Assembly: GCA_950295325.1 (NCBI GenBank) | Contig: OX485805.1 | Location: 18,461,501-18,525,500, forward strand | Source: Polytrichum commune | Taxonomy: Eukaryota; Streptophyta; Polytrichopsida; Polytrichales; Polytrichaceae | DNA: 64,000 bases | Direction: 5' to 3' | Shown here: positions 9,301 to 12,100 of the stretch, one piece after another | Position numbering within the stretch: position 1 is the first letter of the stretch | Layout: each line of letters begins with the position of its first letter | Program-made: the position numbers and the translations under genes | The notes under the pieces: generated by a model | The model's database searches: none | What the model was told of the DNA's origin: nothing | The model's input: only the letters and a program-made list of their open reading frames with translations

Positions 9301-12100
9301 AGTTCATGCCATGTGTGACCTTCAAATGTTGTGTACTATTTAACATCTGTTTTTGTATTCTCATGAAGTTATGCCATGTTTTTGTATTCCAGTGGTTTGG
9401 AGATGCCGAGAAGTTGACAAAGGCTCTGTTTTCTCTGGCAAGGAAGCTCTCTCCAGCTGTCATTTTTGTTGACGAGGTGACCACAGAACATACCCTCCTT
9501 GATTGCTGTACATCATATCAAATGTTTGATGGTTGTCAAGCCTCTGGTTTTGATCAACCTGTGAATATGAGTCTTGGGTCTGTGATTTTGCAGGAATTGT
9601 TTCCAAGGTTGTCAATTTACTTTCAAGCTAGAGTTTATTGAGTAAATAATTTAACTGGTAATGATGATGGCAGGTCGATAGTTTATTGGGGGCGCGTGGT
9701 GGCAGTTCTGAGCATGAAGCCACACGCAAGACCCGAAACGAATTTATGGCAGCTTGGGATGGGCTACGCTCAAAGGATAGTGAAAGGGTTCTGGTTTTGG
9801 CTGCCACAAATAGGCCATTTGACCTTGATGATGCAGTGATTCGAAGACTACCAAGAAGGTATTCTACAATATATATGTTGGAAGCTATTGGTGTTGATGA
9901 GATTGAGATTCAATCGAGTAAAAATATTTGCTAATCATCCACTGCTTATATCTTCATTACCACATATCACCTTCACTTGTGTTTTATTGTATCCCTTGGT
10001 CAGTTGTGCTTCAACATAGAATAGTAGACCTTTTCCCATACCTAAATGACATTGTAGATTAACTTGCACTTTTAGAGTGAAAACATCCTTAACATTGTGC
10101 ACGTGCAGAATATTGGTGGACTTACCCACCACTGAAAACCGGGTGAAGATTCTACGAGTCATACTGGCCGACGAAGAACTGGCTGAGGGGTTTGATTATG
10201 AAGAATTGTCTCGCATGACTGATGGATACTCTGGGAGTGATCTGAAGGTACTTATTATGTAGCCACTCAATCTAAACCTGTAATACTACATGTGATGCTG
10301 TTTATTTTTAATAAGGTTGCTATGTGTGGGATAATATGATGGGCCTGTACTAGGGTGTGCATTTAAGAGAGTTCAAGAAATCAAATAATCTATCCATGAG
10401 AAGATCATAGAAGCCACACAACTATTTACAAGCATTTTTCTCTTACGCAAGAAACAACGAAGATGCCTCTGATGTTGCCACTGGTGTGAATTATGGTGTT
10501 GCTTCATTATGAGTTGGTCTAAGTCTATATGTAATCCTCATACGGGCATTACAAGAGTTTGAAGGCCCCCAAAGACTACTGCCTCCTTTCGAAGTTGAAC
10601 ACCTTGAACAGGCATGGACAAGCCAGCCACCTATCTCCCCCATGGGCGAGCCCTAGATTCCTACATGGTTGGTTGAAAATTTGGTTCAACTGGATTCCCC
10701 TACTATAATTGGGTGGAGCATAGGTCATAGGGTGCAATGGAATCAATTTCTAGGAAGGTCACCCATCCGAGTACTATTCCAGCCTTAGCCAGCTTAACCT
10801 TGGAGTTCCCTTGGGATCAGGGTTTAAAGCCTTGGGTTTGAGCCACCCCTTCTCTTATGCAAATCACACATCTAGTGTTCTTAATTATCCCTGTTGAACT
10901 TGTTGCAGAATCTGTCTATAGCTGCAGCATATCGACCAATAAGGGAGCTTTTGGAATTTGAGGAACAACAGGTACTTTGGAGTTGCACAGATTGTTAGTA
11001 TTAATTTTTTCCTCATCTTAGTGAAGCTACAGAGAGGTTCTCTGGTACAGCAGAAGTATGAAGTGTTCTACAAATAGTCTTTCTAAAGTAATGTTCTTTC
11101 TGTATTATAGGCTAAGGCAGGGATTCCAGCAAAAACAGATAACAACAACACAAGCCAGGGACGATCAAAATCACTTATTAGGCCTCTCATGTTGGATGAC
11201 TTCAAGCAGGCGATGACTCAGGTACATTGAATGAGTTTCTAAATTCTCATCATAAAATTACACTACACCAAGCTCTACCTAGTCTGCACAAGTTGTGCAC
11301 CGGCCTGTAATTTGTTACAGTTACCTTGAGTAGTCTGCAAGTGTCATCTGCAGTGACTAGGTACTAAGTTGATCACAAAACTTATGTTAAAGTTATAGAG
11401 CTCTGTATGTGTCACACAACACTATGATGCATTTTCTTTTAGAAGGATTCTTTTGTCCTGGAGTTTAAATTCAATAGCAACACATCTAAATGGGTCAGTT
11501 GATCGATACAGCTGTTGAGTTTTACTCTAATACACATTTAACTCGACAAACCTATTGTGGTTGTCAATTTTAACATTTCGTATACACTTACGGTAGACAT
11601 GTCTTAGATAGATACTTTTCTCTCTGCACCCACTTCTTGTATGTATCAAATATTCAATTATTGTCACATGATTAGCAAATCTAAATCATGCCCGTAGCTC
11701 ATGATTCTCTTATTAGTAGTCAAAGTGAAGGTTCCCTTGTTCATCAAGTGGTCACATAAGTCCTCCCAACCATGTTGATTAAAGTCCAGAATGGTTACCA
11801 CGCTTCGATCACATACTCCAATCTCTTTTAAACACATCTTTATTTGGTATCTGTTATTAGATTCACACCTAAGCAGATACACTCAAATGTAGTGTCCAGA
11901 TTGTTGGTATGTTCAATTTAGGCACATCTAGCTTAGTGTTGTTTGTGGTTGTGATATTGATGTTTTGGATGTTTGATGATCTGCAGGTGGGTGCTTCAGT
12001 TGCTTTTGATGCTTCCAGTATGAACGAACTGCGGAGGTGGAACGAGCAGTATGGAGAAGGTGGCAACCGCAGGAAATCCACATTTGGGTTTGCAGTATGA
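396..12100 (+). CDS. Plant AAA-type ATPase (At3g19740/At1g50140 family), 5'-partial
   Basis: This is a P-loop ATPase of the plant group related to ATAD1/spastin, with one C-terminal AAA module that probably remodels proteins as a ring. Exons read: 396-490, 1114-1338, 1647-1716, 2101-2158, 2384-2550, 4010-4089, 4834-5031, 5782-5814, 5938-6036, 6327-6416, 6534-6609, 7134-7233, 7406-7478, 8211-8387, 8600-8722, 9393-9476, 9674-9858, 10109-10247, 10909-10971, 11111-11221 and 11987-12100. They join in frame into 785 residues ending at TGA. Walker A is GPPGTGKT (exon 15). Walker B is AVIFVDE, split from [10 protein letters not shown] by an intron. Sensor-1/arginine-finger sequence is [19 protein letters not shown]. 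The C-terminal WNEQYGEGG motif is typical of the family. Exon 2 holds an acidic Ser/Asp/Glu stretch. The first exons lie outside the window. Family membership is firm. Least certain are the exon 5 donor at 2550 and the 33-nt exon 8. The cellular role is not shown by the sequence. Confidence 0.9.
604..930. repeat. AACCAC/GTGGTT-rich hairpin-forming repeat in AAA gene intron 1
   Basis: An ACAACCATAACCACAACC-type run (about 606-650) is followed by its imperfect reverse complement (about 659-690), which would make a stem of roughly 30 bp. A smaller stem of the same motif lies at 888-926. It looks like a foldback or MITE remnant, but no target duplication is evident. Confidence 0.45.
4353..4380. 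repeat. (AT)n microsatellite
   Basis: An uninterrupted alternating TA run lies within intron 6 of the AAA ATPase gene. It has no coding role. Confidence 0.9.
5180..5360. repeat. Foldback dispersed repeat, copy A
   Basis: This segment in AAA intron 7 shares a core (TTTGAATGTAGAAC, then TTCATTGAGG and CACTCATTTT) with 45,240-45,430 and 57,690-57,790. The three copies lie in introns of three different genes. Its ends are partly inverted relative to each other, as in a miniature foldback element. Exact ends are not resolved. Confidence 0.5.
8905..9275. repeat. Dispersed noncoding repeat family (copies also near 11,600-11,890, 12,880-13,010 and 22,400)
   Basis: Landmarks shared between copies in the same order are CTGCACCCACTTCT, GATGATTAGCAAAT, a CGTAG stretch, a TCCAATCTCTT-like run, and TTAGATCCACACC near the right end. 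The copies are divergent and contain AT-rich insertions, for example the ATATATAATT run at 9,008-9,060. The family and mechanism are not identified. Confidence 0.4.
10451..10849 (-). mobile_element. 5S rRNA-derived short retroelement (SINE3-like or Cassandra-like), copy 1
   Basis: Read on the minus strand, the first about 120 nt (10,848 down to 10,729) align end to end with plant 5S rRNA. The element begins GGGTGG and ends TTGCACCCT. Box C AGTACTCGGATGGGTGACC differs from the 5S version at one base, and box A is AGGTTAAGC. A further about 280 nt of non-5S sequence follows. Flanks TTCTCTTACGCAA (10,438-10,450) and TTCTCTTATGCAA (10,850-10,862) form a 13-bp target duplication with one mismatch. 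It sits in AAA intron 18, antisense to the gene. A pol III internal promoter is implied by the 5S boxes. The alternative is a solo LTR of a Cassandra-type TRIM element, but having 5S sequence at the very 5' end favours a SINE. Confidence 0.75.

What the first reader, a model, noticed from the sequence alone, without database searches (positions are those of the whole stretch)
10438..10862. 5S rRNA-derived retroelement with a 13-bp target duplication
The first 120 nt correspond end to end to 5S rRNA with intact-looking pol III boxes, and the element is flanked by a near-perfect duplication. 5S-derived SINEs are well known in fishes and a few mammals; in plants, 5S sequence is better known from Cassandra LTRs. 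This could be a plant SINE of 5S origin.
Basis: partly seen in the sequence, partly recalled or inferred. Interest (0 to 1): 0.7.

Follow-up and report, generated by a model that had tools for sequence, protein, structure and literature searches.

The report
Plant SINE with 5S rRNA head
A 400-base jumping element whose front end is an old copy of the 5S ribosomal RNA gene sits twice in this plant-like DNA; such elements are known from animals and fungi, and in plants 5S sequence is better known from a different kind of element, Cassandra.

Summary
Bases 10849..10730 match the Rfam 5S model end to end (31.8 bits, below the curated cut-off of 38; E 1.4e-4 for 701 bases; E 0.013 for the window). 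They begin next to a 13-bp duplication, 12 of 13 matching. Both keep box A, 18 nt, box C at 5S positions. Cassandra tests fail: no TG...CA ends, no paired repeats, no primer-binding site. Best reading: an old 5S-headed SINE (SINE3 type) made by target-primed reverse transcription. The duplications begin with TTG, hinting, on two copies of which one is weak, at an RTE-type LINE partner. Eight library searches on SINEs or 5S (three listings capped at 20 rows) showed me no plant 5S SINE. Host species, copy number and partner are unknown: no plant genome was searchable.

The parts
10451..10849 (-). SINE copy 1, 399 bp between the target-site duplications
10730..10849 (-). 5S rRNA-derived head of copy 1 (model positions 1-120); box A at element position 51, box C at 81
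   Evidence: Rfam RF00001, 31.8 bits; boxes
10451..10729 (-). body and 3' end of copy 1, beyond the 5S match, shared with copy 2
   Evidence: 178 of 255 aligned bases identical for element positions 121-379
10850..10862 (-). target-site duplication at the element's 5' side (TTGCATAAGAGAA in element sense)
10438..10450 (-). target-site duplication at the element's 3' side (TTGCGTAAGAGAA in element sense)
57950..58366 (-). SINE copy 2, about 417 bp, starting at element base 2 of copy 1; BLAST homology runs to 57975, the 3' end at 57950 is inferred from the possible duplication
58370..58378 (-). possible 5' duplication of copy 2 (TTGGATACA); three bases (TCA) between it and the element are unexplained
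   Evidence: 8 of 9 matching; 6% of 600 random flank pairs do as well
57941..57949 (-). possible 3' duplication of copy 2 (TTGTATACA)
10248..10908 (+). 661-nt intron of an AAA-ATPase gene that holds copy 1 in antisense orientation
   Evidence: GT..AG junctions chosen by eye and located; Pfam AAA match on a neighbouring exon at 20.8 bits, just below its cut-off of 21.2

Best explanation
It is an old copy of a 5S rRNA-headed SINE family (SINE3 type by build) in a plant genome. Inferred mechanism: TFIIIA/TFIIIC bind the internal box A/IE/box C of the 5S-derived head, and RNA polymerase III transcribes from 5S nucleotide 1 through the roughly 280-nt body. The 3' end of the RNA is recognised by a partner LINE's reverse transcriptase, which copies it at a nicked target (target-primed reverse transcription) and leaves a duplication (13 bp here). 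Both duplications, one of them weak, begin with TTG right after a TTC end, so the partner was possibly of the plant RTE type, whose members end in (TTG)n. Shown here: the head, the shared start, two dispersed copies, one clear duplication, and no Cassandra features. Inferred: transcription, reverse transcription and the partner.
For: 5S model 1-120 starts at the base next to the duplication. Second copy with the same start to within one base and unrelated flanks. 26 of 117 three-way aligned head positions are changed from the typed 5S in the same way in both copies, against 5 private to copy 1 and 17 private to copy 2; both also share one extra T after box C. That points to one founder, not two separate 5S pseudogenes. 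Box A-18 nt-box C kept in both. TTTT runs, which can stop pol III: 1 in copy 1 and 3 in copy 2, none at a shared position, so the founder need not have had an internal stop. PMC3747384 (passages) gives (TTG)n or (TTGATG)n ends for plant RTE LINEs and (TTG)n for the tobacco TS SINE.
Against: Only two copies are known, both in this window, and copy number could not be measured. The duplication of copy 2 is weak (6% of random pairs match it) and leaves three bases unexplained. No clean simple-repeat tail was seen, and a profile of the two copies finds no related LINE 3' end in the window. Rfam does not reach its curated 5S score in copy 1, and in copy 2 no 5S match with E up to 10 was listed. The boxes of copy 2 alone are within what chance gives in the window. 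The head is not clearly better kept between the copies (85 of 117) than the body (178 of 255). The TTTT counts are close to shuffles of these sequences (means 1.5 and 3.1). The RNA of copy 1 folds no better than shuffles.
Confidence: 0.85

Rival explanations
1. Cassandra: a TRIM retrotransposon, or a solo LTR of one, with 5S sequence inside its LTR.
For: 5S with pol III boxes is the hallmark of Cassandra, widespread in vascular plants (PMC7215508, passages). About 400 bp is at the top of its LTR range (approx. 400 bp in Fabaceae; PMC10853983, passages).
Against: Primer-binding site TGGTATCAGAGC absent with up to 3 mismatches in both copies and the 300 bases beyond, and absent with up to 1 mismatch in the window; no TG...CA. 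No direct repeat pair overlapping either copy in 4.4 and 4.3 kb around them (E up to 0.01). Nothing of the element lies upstream of the 5S start, and the duplication is 13 bp.
Confidence: 0.04
2. Two independent retropseudogenes of 5S rRNA, or of a 5S-readthrough transcript, that never formed a SINE family.
For: Head similarity is partial (64% and 54%), and only two copies are visible.
Against: Both copies share the same body beyond the 5S match (178 of 255 aligned) and 26 derived head positions plus one insertion, so they descend from one composite founder.
Confidence: 0.07
3. A non-autonomous DNA transposon (MITE) or other repeat that happens to hold a 5S fragment.
For: Short, without a long reading frame in copy 1, intronic and old.
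Against: No terminal inverted repeats at the ends of copy 1 (not run for copy 2), and the 13-bp duplication with a 5S start at its edge suits retroposition.
Confidence: 0.04

Closest known systems
SINE3 families of animals (zebrafish SINE3, AmnSINE1, springhare Ped-1, lepidopteran HaSE3 and PxSE4/PxSE5)
   Same: 5S-derived head (table in PMC3747384; HaSE3 in PMC10886601); for PxSE4/PxSE5 box A, IE and box C, 389 bp, about 63% identity to 5S (PMC8010984, passages). Copy 1 here is 399 bp with 64%.
   Different: Found in a plant-like genome. Their sequences were not compared with this one here, so relation of body and tail is untested.
AfuSINE3 / SINE3-1_AO of Aspergillus
   Same: 5S-derived head, 259-343 bp (PMC5063351, passages).
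   Different: Their A, IE and C boxes are described as poorly conserved; here A and C are within 1-2 mismatches with the spacing kept.
Cassandra TRIM
   Same: Plant element with a 5S-derived pol III promoter (PMC7215508, PMC10853983, PMC10886601; passages).
   Different: Cassandra has two LTRs, a primer-binding site, and its 5S boxes inside the LTR; no LTR ends, paired repeat or primer-binding site was found here.
Tobacco TS SINE
   Same: Possible (TTG)-type 3' end and RTE partner (PMC3747384, passages).
   Different: TS has a tRNA head (recalled); the tail here is only suggested by TTG at the start of the duplications.

Membership tests
SINE | head derived from a pol III-transcribed RNA, starting at the element's 5' end | tested here: met
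   5S model 1-120 starts at the duplication edge; copy 2 starts within one base of the same point
SINE | target-site duplications of variable length | tested here: met
   12 of 13 in copy 1; copy 2 only 8 of 9, not significant alone
SINE | many dispersed copies | tested here: inconclusive
   2 copies in 64 kb with unrelated flanks; no host genome held
SINE | 3' end related to a LINE, or simple-repeat tail | tested here: inconclusive
   no related LINE 3' end in the window; both ends run TTC then TTG
SINE | no protein-coding capacity, 100-700 bp (length range from PMC10886601) | tested here: met
   399 and about 417 bp; among stop-to-stop frames of 90 aa or more none overlaps copy 1, and one of 93 aa overlaps copy 2 in part
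SINE | transcribed by pol III | not testable with these tools
   box A- and box C-like sites present; no RNA data
SINE3 (5S-derived SINE) | box A, IE and box C at 5S positions | tested here: met
   A and C with 18-nt spacing in both copies, read together with the end-to-end 5S match of copy 1; IE not scored separately
Cassandra | paired LTRs with TG...CA ends | tested here: not met
Cassandra | primer-binding site TGGTATCAGAGC 5-200 bases behind box C | tested here: not met
   none with up to 3 mismatches in either copy or 300 bases beyond; query taken from PMC7215508
Cassandra | short fixed target duplication (5 bp for plant Helenus and for Ajax in PMC10886601; 5 bp for Cassandra recalled) | tested here: not met
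   13 bp in copy 1

The most novel reading that the evidence does not exclude
A land-plant SINE family of 5S origin, born independently of the animal and fungal ones and mobilised by an RTE-type LINE. It would be the kind of donor postulated for Cassandra, whose 5S box has been proposed to come from a SINE3 inserted into an LTR.
Probability: 0.3. Interest if true: 0.7.

Novelty: new member of a known kind. Interest (0 to 1): 0.5.

Why it matters
Cassandra, the 5S-bearing LTR element of plants, has been speculated to arise from a SINE3 landing in an LTR (PMC10886601, passage, citing Kalendar 2008), while the 2024 Cassandra study names animals when it cites genic promoters recruited by SINEs (PMC10853983, passage). 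A plant SINE with a complete 5S head would supply the missing kind of donor and make that hypothesis testable by comparing heads. It would also add plants to the animals and fungi that have recruited 5S as a mobile promoter. If 5S SINEs are already catalogued for plants in Repbase (not searchable here), the finding is routine; the plant tool AnnoSINE already sorts SINE heads against tRNA, 7SL and 5S libraries (PMC8825457, passage), and I did not see its results.

Tried and rejected
Cassandra or solo LTR: rejected on ends, repeats, primer-binding site and duplication length. MITE: no terminal inverted repeats at copy 1. A third copy near 7120-7209 (+), suggested by nhmmer at E 4.3 and a loose box pair, scored 26 against copy 1 and, elsewhere in the same 600 bases, 25 against copy 2, no more than the background median of 26 (up to 400 random stretches, those overlapping the copies left out, number kept not printed): rejected. 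The IMG/VR hits L001 and L002 for the box C pattern showed no match to the two-copy profile. Five patterns in viral contigs and one in genome contigs gave no relative; these collections hold viruses and prokaryotes, so this says nothing about plants. Folding of copy 1 showed no more structure than shuffles (z +1.64, 96 of 100 shuffles as good). Six exact strings from the element found no paper. TTG runs at 3846 (3 units) and 22692 (4 units) were considered as LINE or SINE tails; the stretch before the second was only looked at by eye, the first not followed. A literature search for a LINE with PCIF1 found none. The Rfam SNORD111, Prion_pknot, t44, Alpha_RBS, TUG1_3 and mir-42 matches are far below their cut-offs and were set aside as chance.

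Full report
What is there. On the minus strand, 10849..10730 matches the Rfam 5S rRNA model from first to last position (31.8 bits; gathering score 38; E 1.4e-4 when 701 bases were searched; best of 2 matches listed up to E 0.5 for the whole window against 4227 families, E 0.013; nothing reaches a gathering score). The 5S-like stretch begins at the base next to the duplication 10850-10862 and the element ends next to 10438-10450; the two 13-mers agree at 12 of 13 bases. The chance at that fixed position is about 9e-7; scored like random flank pairs, it beat 600 of 600.

A second copy. BLASTN of the 399-bp element against the window finds 58366..57975 on the minus strand, 274 of 398 alignment columns identical, E 4.5e-36; the other hits have E 0.88 or worse. 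It starts at element base 2, within one base of the 5S start. Flanks of 500-550 bases on each side are unrelated, apart from one 13-base match at E 0.76. Copy 2 has a possible duplication TTGGATACA / TTGTATACA (8 of 9), which would put its 3' end at 57950 (about 417 bp), but 6% of 600 random pairs score as well and three bases before the element are then unexplained, so it counts only as suggestive. A profile of both copies finds no further copy in the window above noise (the loose hit near 7.1 kb is at background level).

The head. Against a typed angiosperm 5S sequence, copy 1 has 76 of 119 and copy 2 63 of 117 identical aligned bases. Copy 2's score of 45 exceeds the maximum of 27 in 2935 background stretches, although Rfam listed no 5S match with E up to 10 there. 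In the three-way alignment of 117 positions, 58 are equal in all, 26 changed alike in both copies, 5 private to copy 1, 17 private to copy 2, and 11 differ in all; both copies also share one inserted T after box C. Shared derived states and a shared body mean one founder. Using the box patterns published for Cassandra (PMC7215508, passages), copy 1 has box A at 51 (2 mismatches) and box C at 81 (1), copy 2 box A at 48 (2) and box C at 78 (2), both with 18 nt between. The control in the same call: 38 loose pairs in the window; only copy 1 has a total of 3 mismatches, copy 2 ties at 4 with one unrelated pair spaced 16; one other pair (3 + 3 mismatches, at 7120) has the 18-nt spacing. The boxes therefore support the reading through their place in the 5S alignment, not on their own.

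Body and end. Positions 121-379 agree at 178 of 255 aligned bases, the head at 85 of 117, so the head is not clearly better kept than the body. Of 122 differences 71 are transitions: old copies. TTTT runs: one in copy 1, three in copy 2, none shared; shuffles give 1.5 and 3.1 on average, so this only shows that the founder need not have had an internal pol III stop. Both copies end in TTC followed by TTG, the first bases of the (for copy 2, possible) duplications. In target-primed reverse transcription the first bases of the duplication can pair with the end of the RNA tail (established mechanism, recalled), so TTG suggests a UUG tail. Plant RTE LINEs are reported to end in (TTG)n or (TTGATG)n, and the tobacco TS SINE in TTG repeats with an RTE partner (PMC3747384, passages). 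This partner is an inference from two copies.

Surroundings. Copy 1 lies antisense in a 661-nt GT-AG intron (10248-10908, junctions chosen by eye) of an AAA-ATPase gene (the Pfam AAA match of a nearby exon, 20.8 bits, is just below its cut-off of 21.2). Copy 2 lies between two exons on its own strand that match O-methyltransferases at consecutive parts of the protein, so probably in an intron. Other genes: TCP-1 delta and an O-methyltransferase dimerisation domain. The host is therefore very likely a land plant; the species is not known and no genome is held.

Not Cassandra. No TG...CA ends, no primer-binding site with up to 3 mismatches in or 300 bases beyond either copy, no direct repeat pair overlapping either copy in 4.4 and 4.3 kb, and a 13-bp duplication. 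The 5S starts the element, whereas in Cassandra it is a central motif of the LTR (PMC10853983, passages).

Novelty. Searches listed 20 of 63, 20 of 163 and 20 of 32 papers. I saw listings and, for eight papers, passages found by term (PMC10886601; PMC8825457; PMC10853983; PMC10741241; PMC3747384; PMC5063351; PMC7215508; PMC8010984). None of what I saw describes a plant 5S SINE; 5S SINEs appear for animals and Aspergillus. AnnoSINE does sort plant SINE candidates against a 5S library, so such elements may exist in its results. Subscription papers and Repbase were not searchable, so 'undescribed' is only as strong as that. By build it is a SINE3-type element: a new family of a known kind in a host group where I found none described.

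Noticed in passing
window 30931-36903 (+): A decayed LINE: endonuclease (Pfam Exo_endo_phos_2, E 4.6e-6, just below cut-off) and RNase H (E 3e-14) matches and an RT-like stretch seen only by eye in a translation (no Pfam RT match). A Pfam PCIF1_WW match (E 7e-12, above cut-off) lies at 34540-35145, before the RNase H. PCIF1 is a cap methyltransferase (recalled); one paper search found no report of this combination.
   Followed up: partly
window 13201-16921 (+) and 46768-50176 (-): An inverted duplication (98.3% over 2469 and 92.3% over 952 columns) that carries a frame of about 600 aa in each copy; the copy at 14804-16606 has no Pfam match up to E 0.1 and no NCBIfam match.
   Followed up: partly
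window 2692-3079 (+) and 46741-46357 (-): Another old two-copy AT-rich repeat of about 397 columns at 69% identity; no Rfam match up to E 0.5 there.
   Followed up: no
window 37060-37140 (+): A tRNA-like stretch on the minus strand (box B-like GGGTTCGATTCC, read by eye) behind the LINE; may be a tRNA-type SINE or LINE end; ARAGORN calls no tRNA.
   Followed up: no
window 42609-43503 (+): A direct repeat of about 450 columns at 71% identity.
   Followed up: no
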